A stretch of 25,583 bases of DNA from a virus. Below, piece by piece: positions 4,390 through 25,310 of the stretch. A program made the position numbers and the translations under genes. The stretch covers positions 1 through 25,583 of the IMG/VR virus record IMGVR_UViG_3300035199_000467; one strand, written 5' to 3'. The notes under the pieces are model-generated. The model was not told the DNA's origin. It did not search any database and was given only the letters and a program-made list of their open reading frames with translations. Each line of letters starts with the position of its first letter. Within the stretch, counting starts at the first letter, position 1.

Positions 4390-7300
4390 TTAATCCTCAA
4401 AAGATGCTCCACTATCCGTGATTACGAAGTCAAGAGCGATAAACTCAATGGCCTTTGCAGGCTTTAGGAAAATCTTAGCGTACATGATGTTTCTGTCAAT
4501 CAAATCAGGTGTGGTAGTGGACTGATCCAAGATTACCCGATAATCAGATAGACCCAACCCTGTCTTCACACTTGACAAGAAGGGAAGCACCTGAGCCAGG
4601 AATCTGTCCCATGTAGCCTGAACGTTCTGATCAAATAACAGTGTTGCAGAAATTCGAGAGATTTCCTTCTTGAGGAAAATCAGGAGCCTTCTCACGTTGA
4701 TTCGGTCGAGTGCCGAAGGCGTTACCTGTAAGGTCTTCTGACCGAACATTACAATACCTTCTGCTGGGAACGAGGCAATCGGATTAATGTTTGCCTCATA
4801 GAGTGTGTCGCGATTCTTGGCAGTAAGCCGTTGTCTCACGTTCAAAACCGGGAGTCCCGCTGAACCTTCAGTGAGTCCGCCGCGGTTAAAGCCTGCTGGT
4901 GCGAACCAAATTTCACTATTAGCAGCGCTCGAACCTAGGGTACCCAGAGCTACCACCGAAGGGGGCACCCATAAGAGGGCCCCATTAATGTTATCTCTTA
5001 CCTGTACCCATGGATAGTAAGCACACCCATAGCTGCTGTTTATACCGCGATCCTTAAGATTGGTAACCGTAGTGGTAATATTTCCAATCCGCTCGGCTTC
5101 GCTATCAGTATTTTCCGAAGCGGGCTTGTAGTCGCCTAGTAGGTCAAGGATAGCCAAGGAGTCTGCTCTGTCCTCACATACATTAAGCATGTGACTCGTG
5201 AGTGACTCGTACGTGAGCCCGGGCACCGTGAGCATATTCATCTCAACCACTTCCGGGTCAGCGACTGTATCGATTGCCTTCTTCGCAGAGTAGAATACAT
5301 AGCTCGTAGTGTCATCAGCGCCGCCAGGGATACCCGTGTTGCGCAAGGGATCTTTCTCATCAATTCGGAAACCATCGAGTCCACCGAATAATGGCATTGT
5401 GAAACGATCAAACCCTCTATCCAAGACAGCGGTGTAAGAACTTGTCACGCTCGTACAAGATGTTCCTGCAGCCCGAGAGCCTGAAACGTAGTTCATGACG
5501 TTAGCCGAAGAGGCATAGAACAAATCGTCCATAGTGAATGCAACGTTTTGAGTCGAGGCTCCGGCGTCGAAGGTCTGTGCACTGATGTCCGAAGGCTTGG
5601 CTCGCACAACATCCTGGTAACTAGCGTCAAACCTTGTCGAACCACTGTTTACAGTTGTGGTCAATCCAAAGTAAGCATCTGTTTGGTTGCTCAGCGCTCC
5701 ATCAATCGATGAAGATCTCATCGTGATGCTTGGGAACTGAATGGAGCAGGTTGCGGCGCTAGATGCAGAGAAGAACGTGTCACCATTGATCACGCTAGAC
5801 GATATAACCGTCATGCCTCCTGTTACAAACAAAGCTGATTCGTTGCCAGCGGCCGTACCTGAAATCACTGTTACGGGGTTATACTGCGGTGGTCCAAAGA
5901 AGCCAAAGGGAATGTAGGAGGAATCTGCTACTCCATCATCTACGTCTGAGTTCATTTCAACGCGTACAAACTGTGACTTATTATCATACTGACCGTATTC
6001 TTGATACGCTCTGTCAGCATCGATCCATGCCACATATTTATCCCCAACCTTTCTTCCGAGGTAGTTCATAGAGTTAGGGTTCAAGTTGCAGTCACTAAAT
6101 CTTTCAATCGAGCGGACCGCATTATCGGAGTCTTGCGCCTTCCTTACTACAACAGTAAATGTCGGATAAGGATCGTCTAAGCTGGTGGGGGCGGTGAGGT
6201 CCTGAATAGAAACCTTAAGGTTCTTTTGGTCCCACTCGCCACTTCCCACACCTAAACTATGGAGTTTGAAGAGTTTCTTAACACGCGAAGAATCCACTGG
6301 GGTGTAACCCGAACCAGAAGTAGACTGATCCTGAGAGAATACCCAGCCGGATTGGGCGGCCCTGAAAGCCTGTCTGAAGTCGGCTCCATCCTTGCTGGCA
6401 ATAGAGTCGCCCTGAATGGGCACAATCATTCCCAGAACTGTGTCGGACGTATTGTTGGCTATGCGCTCCGTTATATTACGATCAAAGGTCTCGCCAAGCC
6501 AGTAATTCGTCAGTCCAGCGGCGGGCGTGACGGCACTATTGGTGAGGGTGGGATCCGTATTAAACACCTTACGGATATAGTTTGCAGATGAATCGTTAAA
6601 GTTACATACCTGCTTCGTAACGGTGTTTTGACTCGCATCCTGAATTACGACCTGGAACTGTTTGCTATCCCCGGTGGCTTGGAAGAGCCCGCATGAGCCG
6701 GAGGAATTCATACCGAATGCGGCGCCGGGCTCGCCAACGTCGTTAGTACCCGTCAGGACCACGCACCCGCTATTCAAATACCAGATTGCGGCTAGTGTAC
6801 CACTTGCGTTTTGCATCCCGCCTGGACCGCCGGAGCCGGAGGAGAAGTCCATACTAGCGGACGAGAAACCGTTCTCGGTGGCGTGGGCTGTGGTTGTGTT
6901 GCCTCCGGCGCCGCCGACGTCTTGCACTACGGTGACTACCGCGCCGTCGACAGTTGCAGTAAGTGTCGCGCCCTGGCCACCGACAACTGCGTTAATGCAG
7001 TCAGCTAACGACTGCGCTTGCTGCTCGTAGCCGGTCGCATCGTCGGTCGCGGCAAGCTTGTATTCGCTATCGGCGGTGTCCTCGACCGCTTGGGCGGTAT
7101 AAGCGTTACTGCCGCCCACGTAATCTATAAGAGTGAGAGTCGAAGCGGCGACTGCGGCGCCGGTGGAATGGAGAATGAGGGTAGCGACGTCTCCGGCGGC
7201 GGAGGATCCACTATCAAACACGACAAGCCCGAAAGCTCCGCCGTTGGGTCCACCAGCATTCCGACCGACGGCTGCACCTGAACCGTCACCAGCCTGCCAA

Positions 7301-7656
7301 CCTGCTCCTGCAGCAGCGGCAGCGGTCTTGTTGGCGGATTCATCACCAAGGACTCTTACATATGTGATAGGTCCGTTGTTCTTAAGGTATGCCTGCGCAG
7401 CGTAAGCCCCGTATGTGGCCCCTGACTTGTTGCCGTCTCTCCAAGTGTCCGGTGTGCCTTTACCTGGGATGGGGTTACCAAAGATACTAACAAAGTCTGA
7501 GAAGGACTCTACTCTTACGGGACGCATCGCTGGTCCACGCTCTGAGCGTCCTACGATGACGGGTCCCACGTCGGGTGACACCTTTGGTACCTGCGAATTA
7601 TCAATCTCATCGATGAAGATTCCAGGTGAGACGAACTTGAATTTCTTAACAGACAT
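4390..7656 (-). CDS. gp18: Tail sheath protein gp18, enlarged
   Basis: The contractile sheath subunit. At 1088 residues it is far longer than T4 gp18 (659). The N-terminus (FVSPGIFIDEIDNSQ, then VGPVIVGRSERGP) and residues 50-105 (SFSDFVSIFG, AYLKNNGPITYVRVLG) are classical sheath sequence. The C-terminal 100 residues (LLIFLKKEISRISATLLFDQ to the end) form the conserved core that makes the handshake between subunits. Between about residues 110 and 330 lies a Gly/Ala/Ser/Thr-rich insertion with a repeat-like beta domain at about 172-260 (LTLIDYVGG, then SLADCINAVVGGQGATLTA, then VVTVVQD), a type often seen in virion surface proteins. The middle (about 600-780) also looks surface-exposed and Ser/Thr-rich. 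It has its own ribosome site (AAGGAGAAA) and follows a terminator and a candidate promoter motif. Confidence 0.95.
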   Translation of the reverse strand: MSVKKFKFVSPGIFIDEIDNSQVPKVSPDVGPVIVGRSERGPAMRPVRVESFSDFVSIFGNPIPGKGTPDTWRDGNKSGATYGAYAAQAYLKNNGPITYVRVLGDESANKTAAAAAGAGWQAGDGSGAAVGRNAGGPNGGAFGLVVFDSGSSAAGDVATLILHSTGAAVAASTLTLIDYVGGSNAYTAQAVEDTADSEYKLAATDDATGYEQQAQSLADCINAVVGGQGATLTATVDGAVVTVVQDVGGAGGNTTTAHATENGFSSASMDFSSGSGGPGGMQNASGTLAAIWYLNSGCVVLTGTNDVGEPGAAFGMNSSGSCGLFQATGDSKQFQVVIQDASQNTVTKQVCNFNDSSANYIRKVFNTDPTLTNSAVTPAAGLTNYWLGETFDRNITERIANNTSDTVLGMIVPIQGDSIASKDGADFRQAFRAAQSGWVFSQDQSTSGSGYTPVDSSRVKKLFKLHSLGVGSGEWDQKNLKVSIQDLTAPTSLDDPYPTFTVVVRKAQDSDNAVRSIERFSDCNLNPNSMNYLGRKVGDKYVAWIDADRAYQEYGQYDNKSQFVRVEMNSDVDDGVADSSYIPFGFFGPPQYNPVTVISGTAAGNESALFVTGGMTVISSSVINGDTFFSASSAATCSIQFPSITMRSSSIDGALSNQTDAYFGLTTTVNSGSTRFDASYQDVVRAKPSDISAQTFDAGASTQNVAFTMDDLFYASSANVMNYVSGSRAAGTSCTSVTSSYTAVLDRGFDRFTMPLFGGLDGFRIDEKDPLRNTGIPGGADDTTSYVFYSAKKAIDTVADPEVVEMNMLTVPGLTYESLTSHMLNVCEDRADSLAILDLLGDYKPASENTDSEAERIGNITTTVTNLKDRGINSSYGCAYYPWVQVRDNINGALLWVPPSVVALGTLGSSAANSEIWFAPAGFNRGGLTEGSAGLPVLNVRQRLTAKNRDTLYEANINPIASFPAEGIVMFGQKTLQVTPSALDRINVRRLLIFLKKEISRISATLLFDQNVQATWDRFLAQVLPFLSSVKTGLGLSDYRVILDQSTTTPDLIDRNIMYAKIFLKPAKAIEFIALDFVITDSGASFED

Positions 7657-7818: not shown

Positions 7819-9897
7819 TTACGAATAGAGATAAACGATCTTAACCAAGTCGTCTGTATCAACAGCGTTGTTGAGACCAACCACGCTACCCGACAAGGAG
7901 TAATCACGCACGTCCGTACCGGTCTTGGAGCTACCAGAAGCCTGGAGTTGACCATTGAGGTAAACAAGTACGTTCTGGAGATCTATAGGAGTGCTGCTCA
8001 AACTGCATGAAGGAGCACTAGAAGGTCCAGCAAAGTTTTGGCCTCCTGCAGTTCCTGTCATGAAGGTTTGAGTGATGAAGCCCTTCATGTTGAAGGTACC
8101 GGCACTACTGGTAGCTTGTAGTCCAGCGCCAGCCATGCCTGTTGCGACATCTTCAATGCTATCGCTGTGGACTTTCCCGTCAGTAGCATCTTTGATGTAA
8201 AACGAGTCGGCACCGACAGCGACGACGACTGCGCTCGAACCGAGTTGAACTTCACCAGACACATTAAGTGCACCGGTGACATTCACCTGAGTTCCCGCAG
8301 AGATGTCGATGTAGTTATCTGCATCAGATGAGAGATATTGGCTCGCATCACGTAGATAGAACTTAGCATCACTAGCCAAGGTGACTGCAGTACTGCCAAG
8401 GGTCAGAAGATCCGTGTCAGCATCGCAACCAATGGTTGAGCCGTTGTCAACAGCCAAGCTCTTGAGAGCCGTGTCGCCGTCAGCATCAACTGAGAAGCCG
8501 GTCATAGTGATCGTACCCATGGTAAGGTCACCAGTACCGTCCACACTAGTTGCACCAGCGATTGCACCAGCAGCAGTGATGCCACCAGTTTGGAGTGCCA
8601 GTGAAGTACCAGCGAGTGCATCGAAAGTACCAGCGGCACCAGATACAACGCCTTCAACAGTGAGAGTGCTGTTAGCACCCACAGCACCACTGAGGTTGAT
8701 CTTGGTATCAGCGGTGATGTCTAAATAGCCATCCTTGCTAGAGTTGATCTTAAGACCAGCGTCACGGACGTAGAACGTCGCGTCGGCGGCCAAACTAACT
8801 GCCGTGTTGCCAAGAGTCAGAAGATCTGTATCAGAATCACAACCAATGGTTGAGCTATCATCAACAGCCAAGCTCTTGAGAGCAGTATCGCCATCAGCGT
8901 CAACTGAGAATCCCGTCATAGTAATCGTACCCATAGTAAGGTCACCAGTACCGTCCACACTAGTTGCACCAGCGATTGCACCAGCAGCAGTGATGCCACC
9001 AGTTTGGAGTGCTAGCGAAGTGCCAGCGAGTGCGTCAAACGTACCCGCAGCACCAGACACAACACCTTCGACCGTGACAGTGCCATTAGCACCCACAGCA
9101 CCACTGAGGTTAATCTTGGTATCGGCGGTGATGTCCAAGAAACCATTAGCACTAGAATTGATCTTGAGACCAGCGTCACGGACGTAGAACGTCGCGTCAG
9201 CAGCCAAGGTGACTGCAGTACTGCCAAGGGTCAGAAGATCTGTATCAGAATCACAACCAATGGTTGAGCTATCATCAACAGCTAAGCTCTTGAGAGCCGT
9301 GTCGCCGTCAGCATCAACTGAGAAGCCAGTCATAGTGATCGTACCCATGGTAAGGTCACCAGTACCATCAATGGCGGTTGCGCCGGCGATTGAACCAGCA
9401 GCGGTGATACCACCAGTTTGGAGTGCCAGTGAAGTACCAGCGAGCGCATCGAAAGTACCGGCAGCACCGGACACGACACCTTCAACAGTGGCTGTGCTTG
9501 AAGCAGCAAGAGTGGTTACACCCGTAAGTGCGCCGACGATCGATAGAGCGCCTGCGATGCCGACAGCATCGGTACTAGGGTTTAGAGATAACGTGTCAGC
9601 AATGTAAACTGTTTCGCCAGTTTGGCCAGTTGCCTGGTCGATGAACGGTACATAACGTGTCGCGTTTGTAGCGTCCGTAGTCGTCTTAAGACTATCGGAT
9701 GCAATGTTGGAGATGTTCGAGCCGTCGCCATAGATCGTCGTGAAGTTTCCATTAGCAAAAGCGGCATCGCCTGAACCCGTGATGCTTCGGGTGGCGCCGT
9801 CAATGTCCCCACTCGAATCCAGCTTGACTACCTCTGAGACGGCTGGAGCGCCTGCAGTCCCAACTAGTTGGGCTGCATTAATTTTTGTTGTTGCCAT
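7819..9897 (-). CDS. Fibre-like virion protein with three 138-residue repeats
   Basis: A 692-residue protein, Gly/Ala/Ser/Thr/Asp-rich with almost no Trp, the composition of a beta-structured fibre. The N-terminus (MATTKINAAQLVG) resembles the attachment region of marine phage fibre and structural proteins. Residues 137 to about 550 hold three tandem copies of a 138-residue unit that begins TVEGVVSGAAGTFDAL; copies 1 and 2 are nearly identical and copy 3 diverges in its last third. The C-terminus has the pattern LVYLNGQLQASG, DYSLSG, DLVKIVYLYS, which matches the end of the gp15-like protein here, and may be a shared tip or cap domain. It probably forms a trimeric fibre or tail decoration, perhaps for host binding. 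Ribosome site GGAGGG. It is preceded by a structured 148-base gap and followed by a terminator. Confidence 0.8.
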   Translation of the reverse strand: MATTKINAAQLVGTAGAPAVSEVVKLDSSGDIDGATRSITGSGDAAFANGNFTTIYGDGSNISNIASDSLKTTTDATNATRYVPFIDQATGQTGETVYIADTLSLNPSTDAVGIAGALSIVGALTGVTTLAASSTATVEGVVSGAAGTFDALAGTSLALQTGGITAAGSIAGATAIDGTGDLTMGTITMTGFSVDADGDTALKSLAVDDSSTIGCDSDTDLLTLGSTAVTLAADATFYVRDAGLKINSSANGFLDITADTKINLSGAVGANGTVTVEGVVSGAAGTFDALAGTSLALQTGGITAAGAIAGATSVDGTGDLTMGTITMTGFSVDADGDTALKSLAVDDSSTIGCDSDTDLLTLGNTAVSLAADATFYVRDAGLKINSSKDGYLDITADTKINLSGAVGANSTLTVEGVVSGAAGTFDALAGTSLALQTGGITAAGAIAGATSVDGTGDLTMGTITMTGFSVDADGDTALKSLAVDNGSTIGCDADTDLLTLGSTAVTLASDAKFYLRDASQYLSSDADNYIDISAGTQVNVTGALNVSGEVQLGSSAVVVAVGADSFYIKDATDGKVHSDSIEDVATGMAGAGLQATSSAGTFNMKGFITQTFMTGTAGGQNFAGPSSAPSCSLSSTPIDLQNVLVYLNGQLQASGSSKTGTDVRDYSLSGSVVGLNNAVDTDDLVKIVYLYS
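8248..9489 (-). repeat. Three tandem 414-bp repeats inside the fibre-like gene
   Basis: Matching landmarks (the codons for the LALQTGG segment) fall at 8581, 8995 and 9409 on the plus strand, exactly 414 bases apart. Units are about 9489-9076, 9075-8662 and 8661-8248. DNA identity is high, including many silent positions. Confidence 0.92.
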
Positions 9898-10045: not shown

Positions 10046-11287
10046 TTAGTGGCCGCCGCTCAAGTCAGCGCTCTGATCCATAAAATTCATCAGGTACCAG
10101 TAGGTGCCATCGTAGACCCACGTTGTTACGTCGCCATCAGCCGTAGTGATGTCAGTGGTTCCTCCCTTGAGGTTCCCGGCGTCCACCATATATGTGAAAT
10201 CGTTGGTCGAAATGATGGTGACGATCTGTCCAGCAACGCCATCGTCGAACGACGTCGCGCCTTGGTAGGTGGCGTCGTAGGTCTTAAACAGGTTGCCATT
10301 GGCAAGGGATGGTGTATAATCGCTATTAGCAAAGGTTTGGAATGTCTTACTTGGGCCCGAAGCAGCAAAGCCGCCGGCCACATTTAGTGTGCAGTCGGGA
10401 CTGCTTGTGCTTATGCCGATCTTATCAGCACTAGAGTCTACAAAAAGTAAATGGGTGTCCGTATCACTCTCTACTCTAAGGTCATTGGATGAATGACCAT
10501 CTTCATTAAAAATGACCCCACTATCGTTCACAGTTATGGCTTCGCCATTTGTGCTGTGAATCTTTGTTTTAAAGCCTGTCTCGCCGTGATTTATATGAAA
10601 GACCTCATTACCGGCGTTTAGATAAAGGGCTAGAGACTCGCTGGGAGATCTTACTATGAAATCTAGGTCTGCACGACCTTCGTTGAAGCTAATTTTATCT
10701 TGGGAATCATCTTCAGTTATGTTGATAAAGCTTACGTTTCCTGCTTTGACGGTTATGTCGTCAGCTTGAAATCTGATGAACGTGTCATCATCCCCTTTAT
10801 GGTAAATGTACTCACCAAGCCCAATATCGCCGTCAACATCTAGTTCATAAGAGGGAGAACCTACTCCATTAATTCCCACCCTGCCTGTAGAGGCATCGCA
10901 TATCAGTAGCGGGTTCCCTTCGTTGGAACCGTTGCCCTTAACAATAAAGTCAATATTGTTACTTCCATCATTAATAGTAGCATAATGAGGAGCAGAGCCT
11001 TGTTTATGAAGAGTGGTGAATGATATATCACCTGCTTTAAGAACTATTTTGTCATCAGTGAATCTGATGTAAGTATCCGTATCGCCGTTGTGAACAATAT
11101 ATTCATTAAGTCCAACGTTTCCTGCTACCTCCAGTTCGTAGGACGACGGCGCAGTACCTATTCCGAGGGCACCCATGGTGAACGAACCGGTTGTGTTGAC
11201 ATCCTGACCTTCGATAGTGTTATCTTTTATATCGTTAGTTTCAATGGTCTCGTCTCTTATCTGAGATCCTTTAATCGTCGGGCTCAT
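10046..11287 (-). CDS. Fibre-like virion protein with SYEL-DG repeats
   Basis: A 413-residue protein. The N-terminus (SPTIKGSQIRDETIETNDI) is a common start for fibre or attachment proteins of marine T4-like phages. Two repeats of about 97 residues begin at 49 and 146, each with SYELxVxGxxGLxEYIxHxG, then DTxIRF, then VKAG or VLKAG and SF. Blocks with VGIN and IGIST motifs resemble the repeats in collar or tail fibre proteins. The last 90 residues (ANGNLFKTYDA, GVAGQIVTIIS, DGTYWYLMNF) form a terminal beta domain often seen in such proteins. The start overlaps the upstream gene by 4 bases (ATGA), so translation is coupled. It is most likely a fibre or whisker-like decoration; receptor binding is not shown. 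Confidence 0.78.
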   Translation of the reverse strand: MSPTIKGSQIRDETIETNDIKDNTIEGQDVNTTGSFTMGALGIGTAPSSYELEVAGNVGLNEYIVHNGDTDTYIRFTDDKIVLKAGDISFTTLHKQGSAPHYATINDGSNNIDFIVKGNGSNEGNPLLICDASTGRVGINGVGSPSYELDVDGDIGLGEYIYHKGDDDTFIRFQADDITVKAGNVSFINITEDDSQDKISFNEGRADLDFIVRSPSESLALYLNAGNEVFHINHGETGFKTKIHSTNGEAITVNDSGVIFNEDGHSSNDLRVESDTDTHLLFVDSSADKIGISTSSPDCTLNVAGGFAASGPSKTFQTFANSDYTPSLANGNLFKTYDATYQGATSFDDGVAGQIVTIISTNDFTYMVDAGNLKGGTTDITTADGDVTTWVYDGTYWYLMNFMDQSADLSGGH

Positions 11288-11667
11288 TCTTCTTCCTCTT
11301 TCTTTGAGAAGTTGGGGAAGATATTATCCTCATCAGGGAAATTAAGTGTCCACCCCGGTTCGTCGGGAACATCACACTCTTCACGAGCCTCTGTAACCTG
11401 CTCACCTAATGCTTTTTGTGCCTCACGCACAAGATCCCATAGGGCTGCCTTCTGCGCCTCAAGTTGGGGGACTAGTGTGTTGTACCGAGATTGTGCCTCC
11501 TGTACGGCGACGTATGCCGCGTTTACTAGTTCAAAGACTTCCTGTGGAATCTCGTGAGCGGGGGGCTCTTCTGGTGGTGGAGACGGTACCAGCTCTTCAA
11601 CCTCATCTTCGTCTAACTCATCCATTAGTAATTCTTGTAGTTTTTCCAGTAATCGCTTTTTTGCCAT
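11284..11667 (-). CDS. Acidic coiled-coil protein of unknown function
   Basis: A 127-residue protein. I chose the ATG at 11667 over an in-frame ATG at 11685 because AGGAGA lies 7 bases upstream of it. The N-terminus is helical (KKRLLEKLQELLMDELDEDE), followed by a Pro-rich hinge (PSPPPEEPPAHE), a predicted helix at about 45-90 (VFELVNAAYVAVQEAQ), and an acidic C-terminus that ends in Glu. It lies between the gp15-like gene and a fibre-like gene and overlaps the latter by 4 bases. A linker or assembly factor for the fibre is possible from context only. No family is recognised. Confidence 0.7.
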   Translation of the reverse strand: MAKKRLLEKLQELLMDELDEDEVEELVPSPPPEEPPAHEIPQEVFELVNAAYVAVQEAQSRYNTLVPQLEAQKAALWDLVREAQKALGEQVTEAREECDVPDEPGWTLNFPDEDNIFPNFSKKEEEE

Positions 11668-11685
11668 TTTTAGTCTCCTATACAT

Positions 11686-13332
11686 TTATGCTGATTTTAC
11701 ATAACTAACTAGTATGAAATCCCCAGTTGTCGGGGCAGCCGTGAAGGTAATCTCGTCGTCGTCTGTCACCGTGTAGTCGTACTCGCCGGCTGATCCAGTA
11801 CGCTGCAAGACCCCATTTTGGAAAACTAGGATCGAACTAGTAAAGGAAGTAGCGCCGAGGGTATACACGGTGTTGGCGCTATTCACAAGACCAGAAGGAG
11901 TTTCATTATATGTCGTACTGTTGATGATAGTGTTGTTGATGGTATCGCCGTCGAGGGCTCCCGTGATGGTTACCGTCAGGGCTGGTCCCGTATTGGTAGC
12001 GGTGACGCCGGCGCCTACAAAGTTAATCGAATCAACACCTGTTGTTAATGCGACGCCCTCGTCGCTAGCTGAGATAGAACTAGCATTCACAGTTACCGTT
12101 ACATCGTTGCCTGAGGTGGTTGCTGTAACGCCGGCGCCAACAAAGTCGAGAGAGGCCATCGCAGTTGTGAGATCACTACCCTCGTCTTTTGCGGTGATAG
12201 CGCTAGCTGGGACGTCAACGGTGACCACATTACCAACGGCTGTAGCAGTCACGCCGACGCCTGTGAAGTCAATCGTCGTCAGAGCAGCCGTGAGGTCAAC
12301 GCCTTCATCTTGTATGGTGATAGCTGAGCCACCACCGCCGGCGGCTCGGGGGCTCGGCATCAGCGGGACCTTAGATCTGTCAGGGGTGATGTCTTTGGTG
12401 CCGTGAGTGACCGTGACTGCTTCGCCGCCGCGGAAGAAGGAGCGATCAGTCCAATCTGGTATATCTCCCACCTGCACGCGCTCGGACGGAAGTACAATCT
12501 CGACAGGGTTTTCTCTCCTAGAAAAATGAGGTCGGTCTCGATTTTTACCCTCGCCGAAGATATATCCCAGAACGTTAATCGTTATTGTGGTATTGTATAT
12601 TCTTTCATCCTCACCTAGATCGGACACATTATTGTCGAATGTAAAATTAGAATCAAAGAACGCCTCATATTTATGTTGGCCATGTTCTATAATGAACTGG
12701 GTCACGGCTCCTGCGTAGGTCATAAAGGGAGTGAGAATCTGGTTCATCTGCTCCTGATAACGAGTGCGGATTTTAATTTCGTATGTTACATTAAGGTAGA
12801 GAGGGGTGGGAATAGAGTAAATGTCATAAACTATCTTTTTTGTCCTTCGTCCGCGTGTGTTAAAATTAACTTTCCCACTTCCCACATCTCCAAACTTTTT
12901 TGCTGAGACGGCGTCTGCATACAGTCCAGTTTTTTCTACATTAATCTGCTTTGCCACCACAAAACGGCCCCCGACACCTCCAATAGGATCGTTCTTCTCG
13001 GGCAGGTTTGCCTGGATTACTCCTTTTCTGCCCATGTCTTTCTCTACGGCAGTTCGCTCAAAGGTCATAATGGGAAGAATTAATGCCCCAAAACTATCCC
13101 GCAATGATTGATCGTGTTTCATCTGGTAGGCGCGCTCAGCGCTCACCCAAAGAACGGGCACTTCTTTCCAATCTTTATGTGTTTCTACAAAGTTTTTAAC
13201 TTTTTGACCAAGCCACTTCCCCATGGCAAAATCAATATTTTCTAGAGACGCAGGACGATAAGGAATTTCGACTGCAGGTTCGCCGCCCTGTATATTAACA
13301 TTAGTGGTAACTAGTTTTTTACTACTCGCCAT
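11686..13332 (-). CDS. gp15-like: Tail sheath stabiliser gp15-like, with fibre-type C-terminal extension
   Basis: A 548-residue protein, twice the length of T4 gp15 (272). Residues 1-285 match the gp15 tail terminator type, with IVYDIYSIPTPLYLNVTYEI then RTRYQEQMNQILTPFMT at about 167-205 and YNTTITINVLGYIFGE near 246-261. In the family this protein caps the finished tail and joins it to the head. After a Gly-rich hinge (332-335) come three tandem repeats of 41 residues (DEG at 342, 383 and 424, each ending GVTATxxGxxxTV) and a C-terminal module (LVFQNGVLQRTG, DYTVTDDDEITF, GDFILVSYV) like the end of the fibre-like protein at 7819. The fusion would place fibre-type domains at the neck. It overlaps the gp14-like gene by 11 bases. 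Confidence 0.82.
   Translation of the reverse strand: MASSKKLVTTNVNIQGGEPAVEIPYRPASLENIDFAMGKWLGQKVKNFVETHKDWKEVPVLWVSAERAYQMKHDQSLRDSFGALILPIMTFERTAVEKDMGRKGVIQANLPEKNDPIGGVGGRFVVAKQINVEKTGLYADAVSAKKFGDVGSGKVNFNTRGRRTKKIVYDIYSIPTPLYLNVTYEIKIRTRYQEQMNQILTPFMTYAGAVTQFIIEHGQHKYEAFFDSNFTFDNNVSDLGEDERIYNTTITINVLGYIFGEGKNRDRPHFSRRENPVEIVLPSERVQVGDIPDWTDRSFFRGGEAVTVTHGTKDITPDRSKVPLMPSPRAAGGGGSAITIQDEGVDLTAALTTIDFTGVGVTATAVGNVVTVDVPASAITAKDEGSDLTTAMASLDFVGAGVTATTSGNDVTVTVNASSISASDEGVALTTGVDSINFVGAGVTATNTGPALTVTITGALDGDTINNTIINSTTYNETPSGLVNSANTVYTLGATSFTSSILVFQNGVLQRTGSAGEYDYTVTDDDEITFTAAPTTGDFILVSYVKSA
11953..12315 (-). repeat. Three 123-bp repeats in the gp15-like gene
   Basis: They encode residues 340-460 as three 41-residue units with the pattern DEGxxLTTxxxxxxFxGxGVTAT. 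Protein similarity is clear; the DNA has diverged more than in the fibre-like gene. Confidence 0.85.
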
Positions 13333-13807
13333 CGAACAAGCCCTCTCTGGCTCTTATACATTGGGCGGATATTTGTACCGGGTTGTCAGGTTGCCCATAC
13401 ATTAAGTCCGGAAGATCCCAGGAAACGATCTCATAAAAATACTCACCAAACTTTATAAAGTCGCCCTCGCGCACATACAAATCTTGGTCTTCTGTCAATC
13501 TCCGATTATGGAAATGAACCGTCAAGGACGCTGTACGATCGACACCAAACGAATCAGACGTAGTTTGGTGCCCTTCCCAATCAACTAGGACGTAAACACG
13601 GATCGGAGGCAAGAAGGTCTTCCTAGGAGCCTCGCCATATAGGGGATGGTAATCGGTATCCTCGATACTGATTGGAAAATATAATATTGGCTGTCCAATG
13701 ACGCGCTCTAGCAGTTCATCGTTGACCTGCTTAGTAAAATCGCGCTCCTTTTTCCCCGTAAACAAAGGAGGAGGAGGGTTCGGAGGTTGAGACCACTCAT
13801 CAGACAT
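13322..13807 (-). CDS. gp14-like: Neck protein, gp14-like, divergent
   Basis: A 161-residue protein, shorter than T4 gp14 (256). It starts with a Pro-rich tail, then a helix (ERDFTKQVNDELLERVIGQP) and a beta-rich body with LYFPISIED at about 43-51, VYVLVDWEGH, a FGVDRTASLTVHF strand and a REGDFIKFGEYFYEIVSW segment near 112-130. The pattern of YxP then an acidic stretch, followed by an FG-x-R-D-like strand and an EGD-x-I-x-F-x-x-x-x-Y-E-I strand, matches the layout of gp14 head-tail connector proteins. Its place between gp13-like and gp15-like genes supports this: the T4 order is 13-14-15. Overlap with the next gene is 11 bases. The call depends partly on synteny. Confidence 0.65.
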   Translation of the reverse strand: MSDEWSQPPNPPPPLFTGKKERDFTKQVNDELLERVIGQPILYFPISIEDTDYHPLYGEAPRKTFLPPIRVYVLVDWEGHQTTSDSFGVDRTASLTVHFHNRRLTEDQDLYVREGDFIKFGEYFYEIVSWDLPDLMYGQPDNPVQISAQCIRAREGLFDGE

Positions 13808-13815
13808 TGATCATG

Positions 13816-15081
13816 TTATCCCTTATACACCAAGTGTGGCATGTTTTTGAATACAGTAGACGCAGACTCCATCTTTTCTGCTTCAAGGGCTGCTAGCTTA
13901 CCATAAGTAAGCTCATCAAGAGTTGTCTTCAGTTCTTCTCTGAGACTCTCCTGTTCTTCCTTGGCCTGCGCAAGAAGATCAGAGGCGTTTAACTGGATAT
14001 CGCTGCCGGGAATTGGAATCGTTGCAAATTTCCCTCTGATTTGTCCAAGCATCTCCTTCGCTAATGACAGGGCGAACCGCCTGATCCATTGCTTACCAAT
14101 GCTATTGATACTGGCATATGGAATGTTCTCGAAAGGAATCGTGTTCATATTATTGATTCCATACGCACCATCTTGTTTATCATCGTCCTGATCCCATGGC
14201 TCTGTTGGGATCGTAAATTGGACCCAATACTTAGAGGGTCCAACGTCTGACGCCAATGGAGGGGGGAACAATCTTAAAACATTATTTCTAATCTCATAAG
14301 AATAATGGGAAGTCCTCGTGTACATAGCGTCTTGGAATGCCATGTTTTGAGCTTTGTTTTGCCATACTGGAATAATTTGATAAGTTGAGTCGTCAGCGAA
14401 CTGCCCATACGTTGATAAGTTCCCAACAACGTTAACTCCTCCGTAGTAGCCGTAGAACCTCCACATGGCGCGGGGGGTTTTATAAAAGACTCTTCTTATT
14501 TTGATACGCTTATTATTAACCAACTCAAAGTACGGCACATCAGAATCGGTCGCAGCCGATGAGGAAATTATATTTTGTAAGTCATAATCCTGGCGCCCGG
14601 CGACTGGAGTTAAAGATGCAGAGTAAATCGTGTCGTCCCCTCCCTCGGCCACCATTGTGCCCACTCCACGACCGATGCGCTGGGCATATTCAAACTTTGT
14701 TCTAGGAAACCGTAACTCTATACCAGAGCCGGATAGGGCATCGGCAGCAACAATTTGACCATCCTCGTTAAAGGAAGCGGTGGCGGCACCAAGAACATCA
14801 GACAAGACATTCTTCGCCTGATGCACATTGACCAAGTAAGAATATTCTAAAACCGATTCTTCATATGCCGCGTAAACCTGGGAGGCTGAGATCTCGACGT
14901 CCAGTATGTCGCCGCCCAACTTCTTGTAGGTGTACGCAACTTGGTCTACTGCGCCAGAAACAAATGGGGCACTGTCATAGATGCCAAAAACTAAATTACC
15001 AATAACATCGCTATGCGTACCAGTAGGTGTAAGCACCACTGCACTGACTTGACTAACGGGAGTTAGGGTCGGAACTGCCAT
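13816..15081 (-). CDS. gp13-like: Neck protein, gp13-like
   Basis: A 421-residue protein, longer than T4 gp13 (309). The C-terminal third carries the feature I rely on: an ALSLAKEMLGQIRGKFATIP helix at about 337-356, then a PGSDIQLNASDLLAQAKEEQ segment and a long helix through LDELTYGKLAALE. In T4-type neck proteins the connector binds below the portal after DNA packaging and receives the tail. The N-terminal half is beta-rich with aromatic residues. It is the first gene after the capsid terminator and a candidate promoter motif. The ribosome site is CGGAGGA. The synteny with gp14- and gp15-like genes supports the call. Confidence 0.75.
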   Translation of the reverse strand: MAVPTLTPVSQVSAVVLTPTGTHSDVIGNLVFGIYDSAPFVSGAVDQVAYTYKKLGGDILDVEISASQVYAAYEESVLEYSYLVNVHQAKNVLSDVLGAATASFNEDGQIVAADALSGSGIELRFPRTKFEYAQRIGRGVGTMVAEGGDDTIYSASLTPVAGRQDYDLQNIISSSAATDSDVPYFELVNNKRIKIRRVFYKTPRAMWRFYGYYGGVNVVGNLSTYGQFADDSTYQIIPVWQNKAQNMAFQDAMYTRTSHYSYEIRNNVLRLFPPPLASDVGPSKYWVQFTIPTEPWDQDDDKQDGAYGINNMNTIPFENIPYASINSIGKQWIRRFALSLAKEMLGQIRGKFATIPIPGSDIQLNASDLLAQAKEEQESLREELKTTLDELTYGKLAALEAEKMESASTVFKNMPHLVYKG

Positions 15082-19337: not shown

Positions 19338-19964
19338 TTATGCATGATAGGCGCCTAAGGCTGCTTCTGCGTCTTCGCGACTATCATAATACGTACACTC
19401 AGCGCCGGGTCCTTTCTTACTACGACCCCAACATTCGCCGGTCTTGTTAGAAATAACTACCCATCCTTTATCACGCTTCTGAACGCAGCCATCCTTGGGA
19501 CACTCTCCCTCTTTGAGGGTCTCTTTCTCAAGCACATCATCACCAAAGAACTCTCTGGCTTCTGCATCAGATAGTACTACTTCTAGTTCTTCTTTGATGA
19601 TTCGCTTAAGTTGTTCTCTTGTTAAATCACGCGTTTGCCGACCTTGTTCGGTTGCTCGATAATCCTCTATACGCTGTGTCACCTCCAGGTCCTCCACTGG
19701 ATGTGCTTCTCCAAGTTCCTCATACGATTCGGTAGCGAGATCATATTCTATGGCTTTGCCCGGGCGGACGCCGGCTGCAACGTAACGTTTATATTCCTTC
19801 GACCCTGGGTCATAGCGAAAGACACCGATTTGATCTGTGCCAGTGTCACCTCCCCCGGCGCGGGGGACGTTGCTCCTTTTCACTAAAACCGTAATCGGAG
19901 GGTTGAGTGTTCGACTTGTCTCCTCCCTGATGATCTGCTTAAGCTGTTGTTTTGTGAGCTTCAT
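19338..19964 (-). CDS. MKLTK-leader protein with a second internal leader copy
   Basis: A 208-residue protein. Residues 1-15 (MKLTKQQLKQIIREE) are the shared leader. A second, close copy lies at 113-127 (DLTREQLKRIIKEEL), so the gene looks like a fusion of two leader-bearing ORFs. The C-terminal part (153-208) has four Cys (155, 160, 178, 190) in a small domain with GWVVISNKTGECWGRSKK and a YDSREDAEAALGAYHA end. Two candidate gp21-type sites exist: LGE/A at 86-87 and LKE/G at 152-153; the second would free the Cys domain. The start lies 2 bases after the stop of the membrane protein gene. The function of the domains is unknown; I infer an internal head protein that may be processed. Confidence 0.75.
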   Translation of the reverse strand: MKLTKQQLKQIIREETSRTLNPPITVLVKRSNVPRAGGGDTGTDQIGVFRYDPGSKEYKRYVAAGVRPGKAIEYDLATESYEELGEAHPVEDLEVTQRIEDYRATEQGRQTRDLTREQLKRIIKEELEVVLSDAEAREFFGDDVLEKETLKEGECPKDGCVQKRDKGWVVISNKTGECWGRSKKGPGAECTYYDSREDAEAALGAYHA

Positions 19965-20250: not shown

Positions 20251-20505
20251 TTAATAATCCTCCGAACTCAGGGGATTCTCGAAGTCAACAATCGCTTCTT
20301 CTGCGGTTTGCAAAAGATCTAGAAGTTCTTGGTCTGTTGAGTATCGCGACTGCGTACGTATATATGTAGCAAGAGCTTCCAACGCTGCGGTATGGGGTTC
20401 TGGCACGGATCTTGTGGAGCCTCCCAGCCAATCGTCCCCATACTTCCCTACCTCATTTAGCTCTTCTTTGATGATTTGCTTAAGCATTTGTTTTGTTAGT
20501 TTCAT
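20251..20505 (-). CDS. MKLTK-leader protein, 84 residues
   Basis: It starts with the shared leader MKLTKQMLKQIIKEEL, then a short hydrophilic linker (GKYGDDWLGGSTRS) and a helix-rich domain of about 45 residues (PHTAALEALATYIR, QELLDLLQTAEEAIVDFE). It has no Cys and no membrane segment. The start overlaps the stop of the upstream leader gene by one base (TAATG), so translation is coupled. No family is recognised. A role as internal head protein or effector is inferred from the leader and place. Confidence 0.75.
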   Translation of the reverse strand: MKLTKQMLKQIIKEELNEVGKYGDDWLGGSTRSVPEPHTAALEALATYIRTQSRYSTDQELLDLLQTAEEAIVDFENPLSSEDY

Positions 20506-20927
20506 TATTTTGGTCCCATTAAGATACCAGCAACAACAGTGGCTACATCGCGATCGCCACCCCCTTGAAGTGGCCAGCCGGCTGCTGCCAAAGTATTTCT
20601 GTCTAAATAATCATGTCCCATAATTGACTGTTTAAAATGATCAGGAGTAATGTTGTTTTTCACCAAATAACCTGCTACTCCTGCTACATTTCGAGGGGAT
20701 GCTTCATGTGTTAGGGTGAGGTCTTTTTGTTGCAATATATTATTTAAAAGTTCTGTCCATTTTTCTACTGTCCAATCAGAAGAAGGATCGTCGCGACGGG
20801 GTCCGTAGGGGCGGATGTCGGGATAATCGTCGTAGTCTTCGTAGTTGTACCCGGGCTTCCAAGCTTCTGTCACGCTATCAAGTTCTTCTCTGATAATCTG
20901 TCTAAGCTGACTCTTTGTTAGTTTCAT
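20505..20927 (-). CDS. MKLTK-leader protein, 140 residues
   Basis: It starts with the shared leader MKLTKSQLRQIIREEL; shortly after follows VTEAW, close to the gp21 site type (P3 is V here instead of L or I). Then comes an Asp/Tyr/Pro-rich linker at 26-50 and a C-terminal domain of about 90 residues with WTVEKWTELLNNILQQ, NVAGVAGYLVKNNI and VATVVAGILMG segments. The last segment is Gly-rich but too short for a confident membrane helix. It is the first gene after the prohead protease, 7 bases from its stop. No family is recognised. Confidence 0.75.
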   Translation of the reverse strand: MKLTKSQLRQIIREELDSVTEAWKPGYNYEDYDDYPDIRPYGPRRDDPSSDWTVEKWTELLNNILQQKDLTLTHEASPRNVAGVAGYLVKNNITPDHFKQSIMGHDYLDRNTLAAAGWPLQGGGDRDVATVVAGILMGPK

Positions 20928-22511: not shown

Positions 22512-23338
22512 TATTCTTCAATCTCTTTTACTAGATTCTGAACCCTTAAGACTTTCTTAATCATGGTTTCAGTAATGCTCTGTCCTGCAAACGATTCCAG
22601 CAGTCCTATAACATCTTTGGTCTTCTCAATCATCTTGTCATCCGACTGAATCTCTTGAGTTGTCATTGAATCGCTTAGAAGCCCTTTTAGTCTCCCAACT
22701 TCTTCGTTTAGGTGTATCTTTAGCTCTACACCGTTGTCGAGGAACGACATTATGAACTTGTTAAGCAGTTCTTTCTGTTCATTCAACAAACTATTTGAAT
22801 ATTCCTCGTTAAACTTCTTAACGAAGGTGGTATAAAGCAGATTGTCTACTGGCTTCATTAAAGCAGCTTCCCTTTCCTCGGGCCGAGACGAAATACGTGT
22901 AACCAAGCGTTCTTCAAGAACGATCTTTGTGTTTAAGGGAGTCTTTTCATTGAAAATCTGGTACAGTGTTGCCAAATTCTTATAATTTGGAGCAAAGTTC
23001 GTAAAAACATCCTTACTCACCTCTTTGTTCACGCGGTTAATCAATGCAGTCTGCTCATTGAACAGATCCTTCTTATCAACTTTGGCGTGCATCTCTTTTG
23101 TGGCGTGTAACAGCTTCTCAGCACTGTAGGGTGTCAGATTTTTGACTTCCATCAGATTCTTGTAGCATGATAACTCACGTCGCAGTTGAGTTCCTTCTTT
23201 GAAGTGTTCTTTGATGATTGCAAGGATTGTTTCCTTTGACTTGTCGCTTTTACCCATAACACTCTTTGTTACTTCGCGGACTAAAGCTTCGTAAAGAAAA
23301 GCGGTATTTCTTTTCTTATTATGTCTCAGTTTTTTCAT
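22511..23338 (-). CDS. Helical protein of unknown function after the portal gene
   Basis: A 275-residue, Lys/Glu-rich and mostly helical protein without membrane segments. Its start (KKLRHNKKRNTAFLYEALVR) looks conserved and basic; coiled-coil-like parts are at about 40-110 and 185-235. It overlaps the portal gene by 20 bases, which points to coupled synthesis. A role in the prohead core or in portal assembly fits the position, and the basic N-terminus could bind nucleic acid or the acidic portal tail, but neither is shown. I do not recognise a named family. Confidence 0.75.
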   Translation of the reverse strand: MKKLRHNKKRNTAFLYEALVREVTKSVMGKSDKSKETILAIIKEHFKEGTQLRRELSCYKNLMEVKNLTPYSAEKLLHATKEMHAKVDKKDLFNEQTALINRVNKEVSKDVFTNFAPNYKNLATLYQIFNEKTPLNTKIVLEERLVTRISSRPEEREAALMKPVDNLLYTTFVKKFNEEYSNSLLNEQKELLNKFIMSFLDNGVELKIHLNEEVGRLKGLLSDSMTTQEIQSDDKMIEKTKDVIGLLESFAGQSITETMIKKVLRVQNLVKEIEE

Positions 23339-25310
23339 CTTTTTCCTGCTCCGTGTTGTTATTGTTCTTGTTCATGGTCTCTATCAAGACTTTAATGTCG
23401 TGATTTACTTCGAAGACTTTCCTTTCTTCCTTGTAATTAGGATCCATTTCGCTATAATGTCCTTCTTTGTAGAGAGACTCCATGTCAAAGTATCCTTTAT
23501 ACACGTTTTTCCTGCCTCCAGGAGACTTGCCACCTAGCGATGAGAAGTTCCTTTTGCGTGCACCCATGTCCCTGGTGTCGGTCGTGACGGGATCATACCA
23601 TTTCCCCTTAGATTTAGAAGTCTTGGTAGATTTTGGGCGTCCTAGAGCGTCCTTCTTGGTCGTCTTATACCAGTCGGCGTCTCGTTTGGCTGGCGGCTCG
23701 GCCAATAACGAAGTTTCCGGCTCTGCAGCCTCTTCACCGCCCAAGTCTCCGCCTAGATCTTCACCGCCCAAGTCTTCACCGCCGAGATCACCGCCGAGAT
23801 CACCACCTAAGTCTCCTCCTAGATCTCCACCTAAGCCTGAGCCATCAGCACCTGCCTGGACCTCTTGAGCAATCTGCTCAATCTTTGAAGTATAGCGAGC
23901 GTCAAAGACGATCTCTCTTTGGTTCCTGACAATCTCTTCGTCTGAGAGCTTGAAGAGCTTTTTGGCAACCCAGCGCTTGCTGAAGAAGCCTTCGGTTGCA
24001 GATGCAGCCACATCGAACTTCGTTCGCCAGTGCTCTAGCTCTTGCAGTTCTGCAAGTTTTGAAGGGTTGGCGAGTGAAAGACCGAACGATAGAAGATCAT
24101 GCCCTCTGAACCCCAATGTGTACAAGTGAATGATACCGATCTTTTCTAGTTCAGAGATAACAGACCTTTGTAGTCTCTGGATTGTACGAGCGAACCTAAT
24201 ATCCTTCTGTGATAAGGTTGTCTTGTCCTCTTCTGCTCCCTCACCTCTTGAGAGATAGGACTGTGGAACCTTAAGTGCAGAGAACAGCTTGTCTCTGAGG
24301 TATTTAACGTCGTCAATGTCACCAGTGTATGTTCCCCCAGGGAGGCTTTCAACTCGTGATGACTGTCCACCACGAATAGGGATGAAGTAATCCTCATCAA
24401 TACTCATTGGATTGTAGCGCAGGTCAACACGCCCTGTTCCAGGATCGATGACTTGGTTTCTCTTCATCTGTGTAACAACGCTTTGCATGTGTTGATCAAC
24501 GTCTTCAACGGCAATGTTTCCAACGTCGATGTAAAAAACGCGTCGCTCAGGAGAGCGGACGATCCGGTATGCCATCATGGCATCTTCTAGGAGTAGCAAC
24601 TGTCTCCAAATTCTTCTAGCTGGTTCTAAAACCGATGTGCCATATGGTGCATACTTGTCATTCCCTAGAATACGGAAGTGACCAACCTGCCAGTTCTCAA
24701 ATGTGAGCCCACCAGAGTTCCACTGGAATTGGACATAGTTTGGGTTGGCTGGATCTTCCCCTTCCAATCTTTCAATCTCGCCAGTTGGCAATCCGATCAC
24801 GTTCTGAATACCTTTGTTCTCATCGATGTCGAGGTAAAGGAAGTAGTCACCATTCTTACACATGGAGCGACACCAGCCGAAAAGGTTGAAATCTATGTTC
24901 AGGATGTTGTGATACAATGTATCCAAAAGCGACTTAATCTCTTCGTTGTGACAATCGATCAGTAACAATGGGTTAAGCATTGTTGATGTTGTCATTTCGT
25001 CAGCGTAAATGTCAAGAGTTGATGCAATTTCTGGGGTGTATTCCATTTGATCAAAGTCGACATAACGATCTGCACGACTTTGGTTTTTTAGGAAGTTCCC
25101 CTGCATTCCAGAAAAGGGATTGTATTCCGCTTTCTTGAATGATAGTCCGCCCGCAGATTGAAATCTACTGCTATATTTGTCTAGTTGAACCCTTCTCAGT
25201 TGTCGTGGGTTCTGCCGCTTGTATGTGGTTAGAGGCCCCGATAATAGCCTTGTTAACTTCCGGAATAATTCGGAGTTGGCGTTCCTGGGATTCTTTTTCT
25301 TGTCTGCCAT
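23319..25310 (-). CDS. gp20: Portal protein gp20
   Basis: A 663-residue portal, longer than T4 gp20 (524). Conserved segments include SGPLTTYKRQNPRQL near 24, MEYTPEIASTLDIYADE at 89-105, PYGTSVLEPARRIWRQLLLL at 222-241, YRIVRSPERRVFYIDVGN near 248-265, a VDLRYNPMSIDEDYFIPIRG block, and KVPQSYLSRGEGAEEDKTTL near 347-366. The dodecameric portal is the DNA gate, nucleates the head and binds the terminase. The extra length is a C-terminal tail: acidic GGDL repeats at 491-527, then a basic Lys/Gly-rich part (about 540-615). It starts 8 bases after the terminase stop, a different order from T4, where 18 and 19 lie between. Confidence 0.95.
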   Translation of the reverse strand: MADKKKNPRNANSELFRKLTRLLSGPLTTYKRQNPRQLRRVQLDKYSSRFQSAGGLSFKKAEYNPFSGMQGNFLKNQSRADRYVDFDQMEYTPEIASTLDIYADEMTTSTMLNPLLLIDCHNEEIKSLLDTLYHNILNIDFNLFGWCRSMCKNGDYFLYLDIDENKGIQNVIGLPTGEIERLEGEDPANPNYVQFQWNSGGLTFENWQVGHFRILGNDKYAPYGTSVLEPARRIWRQLLLLEDAMMAYRIVRSPERRVFYIDVGNIAVEDVDQHMQSVVTQMKRNQVIDPGTGRVDLRYNPMSIDEDYFIPIRGGQSSRVESLPGGTYTGDIDDVKYLRDKLFSALKVPQSYLSRGEGAEEDKTTLSQKDIRFARTIQRLQRSVISELEKIGIIHLYTLGFRGHDLLSFGLSLANPSKLAELQELEHWRTKFDVAASATEGFFSKRWVAKKLFKLSDEEIVRNQREIVFDARYTSKIEQIAQEVQAGADGSGLGGDLGGDLGGDLGGDLGGEDLGGEDLGGDLGGEEAAEPETSLLAEPPAKRDADWYKTTKKDALGRPKSTKTSKSKGKWYDPVTTDTRDMGARKRNFSSLGGKSPGGRKNVYKGYFDMESLYKEGHYSEMDPNYKEERKVFEVNHDIKVLIETMNKNNNNTEQEKDEKTET
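23730..23840 (-). repeat. GGDL / GGEDL low-complexity repeat in the portal gene
   Basis: Short tandem units of 12-15 bases encode residues 491-527 of the portal as repeated Gly-Gly-Asp-Leu and Gly-Gly-Glu-Asp-Leu. It is a flexible acidic linker prone to copy-number change. Confidence 0.9.

What the first reader, a model, noticed from the sequence alone, without database searches (positions are those of the whole stretch)
11686..13332. Tail terminator gp15-like protein fused to fibre-type repeats
Residues 1-285 look like gp15, but about 215 extra residues carry three 41-residue DEG repeats and a terminal module that also ends the fibre-like protein at 7819. Such modules on the neck could act as whiskers or host-binding elements at the head-tail joint, and the shared end suggests module exchange between virion genes.
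Basis: partly seen in the sequence, partly recalled or inferred. Interest (0 to 1): 0.5.

Follow-up and report, generated by a model that had tools for sequence, protein, structure and literature searches.

The report
Tail terminator fused to neck-fibre module
In a group of marine viruses of bacteria, the ring protein that closes the top of the contractile tail carries an extra fibre-like arm with an attachment-type end domain, and this form occurs almost only where fibre genes have been inserted next to it, which suggests a fibre built into the virus's neck.

Summary
ORF 13332..11686 (minus, 548 aa) is a T4 gp15-type tail terminator (residues 1-300; Pfam PF16724; T4 gp15 4hud Z 13.0) followed by a disordered linker, three 41-residue DEG repeats and an 85-residue terminal module (TM). 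It is not an assembly join: four further complete IMG/VR ORFs (L002-L005) have the same architecture. The same kind of module ends the fibre at 7819 and most neighbouring-cassette fibres elsewhere.

Beyond the finding: among distinct gp15s with readable downstream DNA, TM-bearing gp15 is followed by a coil-plus-fibre cassette in 36 of 36, and TM-less gp15 directly by the sheath in 116 of 119 (not phylogeny-corrected). gp15 is duplicated or fused in tandem only in TM/cassette genomes, and the downstream copy bears TM. Silent sites show that extension and gp15 core have recombined. TM folds like virion-attachment domains (T7 gp17 N-terminus, CBA120 XD2, T5 adaptor p144), so I favour an assembly/docking or trimer-capping role in a neck fibre over a host-binding tip. 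New variant of a known kind. Fibre stoichiometry, location and function are inferred, not shown.

The parts
11686..13332 (-). gp15-TM fusion ORF, 548 aa (stop 11686-11688)
12433..13332 (-). gp15 tail-terminator domain, residues 1-300; residues ~269-288 correspond by alignment to the P1 terminator C-terminal segment that inserts into the top sheath ring
   Evidence: model 4-300; P1 8jan_A Z 10.9, model 19-288 against chain 18-260; PMC10304247 passages
12322..12432 (-). flexible linker, residues 301-337; begins where plain gp15 proteins end
   Evidence: AF2 pLDDT under 50 over 294-336; C-terminal comparison
11953..12321 (-). three 41-residue DEG repeats, residues 338-460
11689..11943 (-). terminal module (TM), residues 464-548
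   Evidence: HMM 2.1e-34; AF2 pLDDT 84.5, pTM 0.73; fold matches
11284..11685 (-). acidic, probably coiled-coil ORF, 133 aa, first gene of the cassette between gp15 and sheath
   Evidence: gene order; coiled coil judged by eye from the sequence
10046..11287 (-). fibre-like protein, 413 aa (cassette)
   Evidence: homologue in L028; no TM
7819..9897 (-). fibre-like protein, 692 aa (cassette); TM-like end at residues 643-690 (7828-7971)
4390..7656 (-). tail sheath, 1088 aa; directly follows gp15 in relatives without TM
   Evidence: phrog_23 E 4.4e-68
13322..13807 (-). 161-aa protein between gp13-like and gp15, gp14/stopper-like by position only
   Evidence: no Pfam or PHROG match
13816..15081 (-). 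head-tail adaptor (gp13-like)
   Evidence: phrog_211 E 4.2e-12

Best explanation
This is a T4 gp15-type tail terminator that also serves as the anchor of a neck fibre. SHOWN by sequence or model comparison: a gp15 domain, an extension added after the native gp15 C-terminus, fibre-type repeats, an end module with an attachment-domain-like fold, and strong linkage of that end module to an adjacent fibre cassette. INFERRED: six gp15 subunits cap the tail; after the C-terminal strand that locks into the top sheath ring, each chain leaves the ring on a flexible linker into a short beta-repeat arm ending in TM. TM domains associate, probably as trimers, to cap the arm and/or dock the fibres encoded directly downstream, giving whiskers or collar fibres rooted in the tail terminator instead of in gp13 as in T4.
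For: gp15 fold and position. Plain gp15s end at '...GDIP..FYRE' and the window continues after '...GDIPDWTDRSFFRGG'; in P1 the terminator C-terminus inserts into the top sheath ring (passages of PMC10304247), so an addition there should leave at the sheath/neck junction. TM-bearing gp15 followed by a cassette in 36 of 36 distinct readable cases, TM-less gp15 followed directly by sheath in 116 of 119 (Fisher 4e-32; 18/0/2/75 after 80% clustering). Example: L196 (TM, cassette) among relatives at 36-55% identity nearly all with no TM and sheath next. TM ends gp15 whatever lies between: Gly-rich linker only, 1-6 DEG repeats, or a collagen-like stretch plus many fibre repeats. Cassette fibres end in a homologous TM. 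TM profile matches two tandem domains of a K1 capsule depolymerase, residues 113-171 and 189-245 (9k4a, E 8.6e-7); TM fold resembles T7 gp17 N-terminus (Z 8.3, rmsd 2.3 over 65), CBA120 TSP4 (Z 8.0), LME-1 (8.4), T5 portal complex 170-residue chain (8.5); CBA120 XD2/XD3 mediate trimeric protein-protein binding (passages of PMC8825819); the attachment domain of T5 p144 (170 residues) sits on the portal's outer surface (passages of PMC11313276). A BFVD entry named 'Neck protein', 408 aa, carries the TM fold (E 5.6e-5).
Against: No virion, proteomic or binding data. The TM-cassette link is not phylogenetically independent: only 2-4 independent pairs, and one origin of TM is not rejected (AU p 0.192). 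L159/L161 have the cassette without a TM on gp15; two cultured relatives left out of the count, Mel-JY01 and immuto, have no TM yet have ORFs other than sheath next. TM structural Z scores of 8.0-8.6 are only just above the stated background of 7-8, and no Foldseek PDB hit reached E 0.001. The T7 gp17 domain it resembles is at the virion-proximal N-terminus; here the module is C-terminal. The full-length model is weak (pLDDT 63) and no oligomer was modelled.
Confidence: 0.62

Rival explanations
1. The extension is a host-binding whisker: repeats are a spacer and TM is a receptor- or glycan-binding tip at the neck.
For: C-terminal position at the end of a fibre-like shaft; recombination between core and extension, a pattern known for receptor-binding proteins (recalled); TM relatives lie in a capsule depolymerase.
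Against: The extension is more conserved in protein sequence than the core in WIN-L005 and WIN-L006 comparisons; one TM family serves distant phages and both gp15 and cassette fibres; the depolymerase match is to residues 113-245 of 922, far from its C-terminus. The distal carbohydrate-binding module of the A-1(L) neck fibre did not bind its host (passages of PMC10966104).
Confidence: 0.2
2. The extension is a neck-stabilising decoration (collar clamp) with no fibre function, holding terminator, stopper and sheath together.
For: Phage 812 has a terminator with an extra beta-sandwich domain that binds sheath, and separate neck decoration proteins (passages of PMC12886913).
Against: Near-exclusive coupling to a fibre cassette; very long, fibre-like extensions in relatives, to 1778 and 1892 aa.
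Confidence: 0.13
3. The apparent fusion is an assembly or sequencing join of gp15 and a neighbouring fibre gene.
For: L128/L129 have TM in a separate ORF after gp15; repeats and TM also occur in other fibre proteins.
Against: Four closed full-length orthologues L002-L005 in contigs whose names carry four different IMG dataset numbers, 81-87% identical over 1-548, and 36 distinct TM-bearing gp15s with readable downstream DNA.
Confidence: 0.02

Closest known systems
T4 gp15 tail terminator (PF16724; PDB 4hud, 9mkb_AB)
   Same: Fold (Z 13.0), family match, gene position between neck genes and sheath
   Different: T4 gp15 is 272 aa (target length of 9mkb_AB) with no fibre-type extension; here 248 extra residues
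T4 fibritin (wac) collar/whiskers
   Same: Would be a fibre at the neck
   Different: Fibritin is a separate trimeric coiled coil; one source has its loop contacting gp15 (passages of PMC3004832), a later one has it bound by gp13 domain III (passages of PMC12270204). Here the arm is covalently part of gp15 and modelled as beta strands and loops
A-1(L) neck fibres gp82-gp81-gp80
   Same: Neck fibres from an operon of several fibre genes
   Different: Anchored on the gp5 pentadecamer, not on the terminator (passages of PMC10966104)
XD2/XD3 domains of CBA120 TSP4 and T4 gp10; T7 gp17 N-terminus; T5 adaptor p144 attachment domain
   Same: Similar fold to TM (Z 8.0 for 7rfv, 6.8 for 5iv5, 8.3 for 7boz, 8.5 for 9ilp)
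   Different: Low identity (14-20%); in gp17 the domain is N-terminal, here C-terminal
A0A6J5M2L2 'Neck protein', 408 aa, uncultured Caudovirales phage (BFVD)
   Same: Contains the TM fold; about the length of short gp15B-TM proteins (407-425 aa)
   Different: Its gp15 part was not examined here; the name is an annotation only
Flavobacterium phage immuto gene 213 (463 aa) and Microcystis phage Mel-JY01 gp15 homologue (333 aa)
   Same: Cultured relatives; immuto's gp15 homologue is also extended and followed by ORFs of 373 and 380 aa rather than sheath
   Different: No TM found by HMM in immuto; Mel-JY01 shows no TM and has a 104-aa ORF and then sheath

Membership tests
T4 gp15 tail terminator | Sequence match to PF16724 above curated cut-off | tested here: met
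   29.7 bits against 25
T4 gp15 tail terminator | Terminator fold | tested here: met
   4hud_A Z 13.0, 160 aligned, rmsd 4.2; 9mkb_AB E 4.4e-9
T4 gp15 tail terminator | Encoded between neck genes and sheath/tube | tested here: met
   Adaptor phrog_211 upstream, sheath phrog_23 and tube phrog_4542 downstream
T4 gp15 tail terminator | Hexameric ring on the last sheath ring | not testable with these tools
   Only single chains can be modelled
T4 fibritin (wac) whiskers | Segmented coiled-coil shaft | tested here: not met
   No helix of 4 or more residues after residue 206 in the model; the model's confidence there is low to middling
Virion-attachment jellyroll (T7 gp17 N-terminus / XD2-XD3 / T5 p144) | Fold | tested here: inconclusive
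   Z 8.0-8.6 for the best eight, many phage attachment domains below; background 7-8; Foldseek PDB best E 0.021
Virion-attachment jellyroll (T7 gp17 N-terminus / XD2-XD3 / T5 p144) | Sequence relation to a solved member | tested here: inconclusive
   9k4a residues 113-171 and 189-245, E 8.6e-7 (A4) and 1.3e-4 (A5); whether these domains of 9k4a belong to this fold group was not tested
Virion-attachment jellyroll (T7 gp17 N-terminus / XD2-XD3 / T5 p144) | Trimeric assembly and partner docking | not testable with these tools
   No oligomer modelling; read for CBA120 only (PMC8825819)

The most novel reading that the evidence does not exclude
The tail-terminator ring in these phages has been turned into a fibre platform whose symmetry is tuned by gene duplication. 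Where gp15 exists as a plain copy (A) and a TM-bearing copy (B), as neighbours or fused in one chain (L008, L188), A and B alternate in one ring (3A+3B), giving three arms that fit trimeric shafts (collagen-like stretches in L012-type gp15B) instead of six. Duplication arose more than once, each time on a TM background.
Probability: 0.28. Interest if true: 0.72.

Novelty: new variant of a known kind. Interest (0 to 1): 0.56.

Why it matters
If right, a protein regarded as a pure tail cap is a recurrent anchoring point for fibres in a group of uncultured marine T4-like phages, and the neck becomes a second, exchangeable fibre platform besides the baseplate. It gives a genomic marker (gp15-TM plus cassette) for phages with neck fibres, and natural covalent gp15-gp15 dimers that would test ring symmetry directly.

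Tried and rejected
Assembly artefact: rejected. Fibritin fusion: rejected for lack of helix. Pfam gave no useful family for repeats or TM; PHROGs gave weak fibre families (phrog_8745 E 3.3e-4, phrog_18673 E 3.7e-6). PDB sequence search with the gp15 profile and with the whole protein found nothing; fold search did. TM in the immuto extension: not found. Coil ORFs: no informative family. A single origin of TM could not be rejected (AU p 0.192), and the independent-pairs test had too few pairs, so I do not claim multiple origins of TM. For duplications: L008's copies are sisters (support 100) and L188's copies lie with L028 inside the window clade, both apart from the tandem clade (FastTree); gene conversion between tandem copies could mimic this. 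Neurexin hits to TM were set aside as short matches. Genome-contig scan with the gp15 alignment: no relative, so no host was inferred. Paper listings for terminator/neck/fibre terms (open-licence PMC only) showed no title or abstract start describing a tail terminator fused to a fibre; passages only were read in eight papers, none in full.

Rows dropped before the count: 21 locus ids (the same contig or stretch fetched twice, sub-loci of handles, and named phage records), last gp15 matches under 200 residues, and identical gp15 domains. Two of the dropped named records, Mel-JY01 (L023) and immuto (L024), are gp15 relatives without TM and without sheath directly next; counting them would make 5 exceptions of 121. 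Of the 175 rows tallied, 8 with open 3' end and no TM seen, 9 TM-less and 3 TM rows had no readable downstream gene and are not in the 155. The tally deduplicates by whole protein and also counts a TM ORF next to gp15 as TM, so its numbers differ; it has 6 rows with two gp15 domains, no TM seen and no downstream gene, and one sheath-next row with no domain of 150 residues or more. In some searches and 72 gene names such as sheath are by similarity to window ORFs. The Fisher values use counts rounded from the percentages.

Full report
OBSERVATION. The window's 13332..11686 minus ORF (548 aa) lies in a T4-type structural block: portal, prohead protease, major capsid protein, adaptor phrog_211, gp15, then three ORFs, then sheath and tube. 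Residues 157-263 match PF16724 (E 4.7e-7). The AF2 model (51-row alignment of window and IMG/VR sequences, pLDDT 63, better in the gp15 part) finds T4 gp15 as best solved structure (9mkb_AB E 4.4e-9; 4hud_A Z 13.0 over 26-268), followed by other tail terminators. Residues 338-460 are three 41-residue repeats (25, 22, 18 identities; shuffles mean 4.6, max 13). Residues 464-547 form the terminal module, TM.

NOT AN ARTEFACT. A viral-contig scan gave 21 loci. L002, L003, L004 and L005 encode closed ORFs of the same architecture, 81-87% identical; L006 and L007 are cut by contig ends; L009, L010 and L013-L018 have unextended gp15 proteins of 273-320 aa.

ARCHITECTURES. With a gp15 model (A1) and TM models over 259 loci: (a) plain gp15; (b) single gp15-TM: window group, L028 (626 aa), L060/L196 (382), L080 (415), L140-L150 and L232 types (413-424); (c) plain gp15A followed by gp15B-TM: L040, L070, L072, L084 and many more (gp15B 407-425 aa, or longer: 624 in L154-L156, 1778 in L012); (d) both domains in one chain with TM: L008 (1038 aa, six DEG repeats) and L188 (802 aa, one DEG repeat). 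L012-type gp15B has a collagen-like stretch and then many fibre repeats before TM. Exceptions: L128/L129 have TM in a separate 126-aa ORF after gp15; L157 has a 1892-aa gp15B and then a 631-aa ORF with two TMs; L159 and L161 have the cassette and no TM on gp15 (L160 has the same order).

LINK TO A FIBRE CASSETTE. For distinct gp15 domains with readable downstream DNA: TM and cassette 36, TM and sheath next 0, no TM and cassette 3 (L128, L157, L159), no TM and sheath next 116; Fisher 4e-32. At one row per 80% cluster: 18, 0, 2, 75; p 1.7e-17. These P values ignore relatedness; TM needs 5 changes and cassette 3 on that tree, with only 2-4 independent pairs, so the association is strong in count but weak in independent events. 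A single origin of TM is not rejected (AU p 0.192). Two cultured relatives outside the count go against the rule (Mel-JY01, immuto: no TM, sheath not directly next). The cassette is an acidic, probably coiled-coil ORF, often a 71-86-aa ORF (DUF5659 in L084), and one or two fibre ORFs. Of 33 distinct C-termini of ORFs of 400 aa or more downstream of gp15 where sheath is not next, 29 form one family that matches TM (97.3%, E 1.9e-11), and L157's 631-aa ORF matches it outright; the two 413/430-aa proteins and immuto's do not. The window's 7819 protein is in the family of 29, by elimination from the other clusters printed.

DUPLICATION. In the whole-protein tally, 26 of 40 rows with TM and cassette have two gp15 domains; 0 of 118 sheath-next rows do. 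In the FastTree tree L008's copies are sisters (100), L188's copies lie with L028 (95) in the nine-row window clade (100), and the tandem pairs lie in a separate 61-row clade (99). L188's first copy keeps 'DRSFLRGGDLTPTH', resembling the start of the extension linker in its second copy and in L028, as expected if an already extended gp15 was duplicated. Both copies keep the conserved C-terminal strand region in the aligned examples, which fits one shared ring, but this is inference.

FUSION POINT AND EXIT. Plain gp15s end at '..GDIP..FYRE' and the window continues directly after the same place. In P1 the terminator's C-terminal domain (245-260) is inserted into the top sheath ring (passages of PMC10304247), and P1's chain aligns to model residues 19-288. 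In phage 812 the terminator likewise gives a C-terminal strand to the sheath (passages of PMC12886913). Hence the extension should leave at the sheath/neck junction (inference).

MODULE EXCHANGE. At four-fold degenerate sites L002-L004 agree in 123/131 in the gp15 core but 84/123 in repeats plus TM (p 1e-7); L005-L006 100/127 against 26/53; WIN-L002 29/111 against 59/120; WIN-L005 24/93 against 61/116. Opposite directions in different pairs argue for recombination rather than base composition alone. Protein identity of the extension stays high (WIN-L005: core 76%, repeats 87%, TM 90%), which speaks for constraint.

WHAT TM IS. TM alone gives a good model (pLDDT 84.5, pTM 0.73, 30 rows). Solved matches are dominated by phage attachment domains: DT57C and T5 neck (chain of 170 residues, the length given for T5 adaptor p144 in PMC11313276; Z 8.6 and 8.5), KP1 baseplate (8.5), LME-1 (8.4), T7 gp17 N-terminus (8.3), CBA120 TSP4 (8.0), HRP29 (8.0); T4 baseplate 5iv5_AC 6.8 (that chain AC is gp10 is recalled). 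These Z values are only slightly above the tool's stated background, and Foldseek's best PDB E is 0.021. In BFVD, 18 matches reach E 0.001, among them a 408-aa 'Neck protein' and the P-SSP7 T7-like fibre. The TM profile finds two tandem domains of a K1 depolymerase (E 8.6e-7). CBA120 XD2/XD3 are trimeric docking modules (passages of PMC8825819). I therefore read TM as an assembly or docking module.

MECHANISM, with status. gp15 cap with fused arm: shown by homology. Arm outside the neck: inferred. TM trimerises and/or docks the downstream fibres: inferred; about 0.55 on its own. gp15A/gp15B alternate: speculation with indirect support. Host binding by TM: possible, less likely.

NOVELTY. The parts are known kinds; the combination, its recurrence and its coupling to gp15 duplication were not seen in the paper searches named under Tried and rejected. 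Filed as a new variant of a known kind.

Noticed in passing
window 19338-19964, 20251-20505, 20505-20927 (minus): Three neighbouring ORFs between capsid and protease genes start with nearly the same 15-residue peptide (MKLTKxxLkqIIrEE), repeated in similar form inside the first one.
   Followed up: no
window 4390-7656 (minus): Tail sheath of 1088 aa whose Pfam sheath domains match only residues 790-1080.
   Followed up: no
window 23319-25310 (minus): Portal protein with a C-terminal run of GGDLGGDLGGEDLGG-type repeats.
   Followed up: no
window 7819-9897 (minus): The 692-aa fibre holds about three long near-identical internal repeats (VEGVVSGAAGTFDALAGTSLALQTGG...).
   Followed up: no
L012 1030-2640: gp13-like adaptor of the 192.6-kb contig is 536 aa, against 421 aa in the window, with a Thr/Asn-rich stretch not in the window protein.
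   Followed up: no
L157 12658-14553: A 631-aa ORF after a 1892-aa gp15B ends in two tandem TM copies, as if the fibre part had split from gp15B.
   Followed up: partly
L159 8001-8900: gp15 without TM in a genome that has the coil-fibre cassette; the clearest exception to the association.
   Followed up: partly
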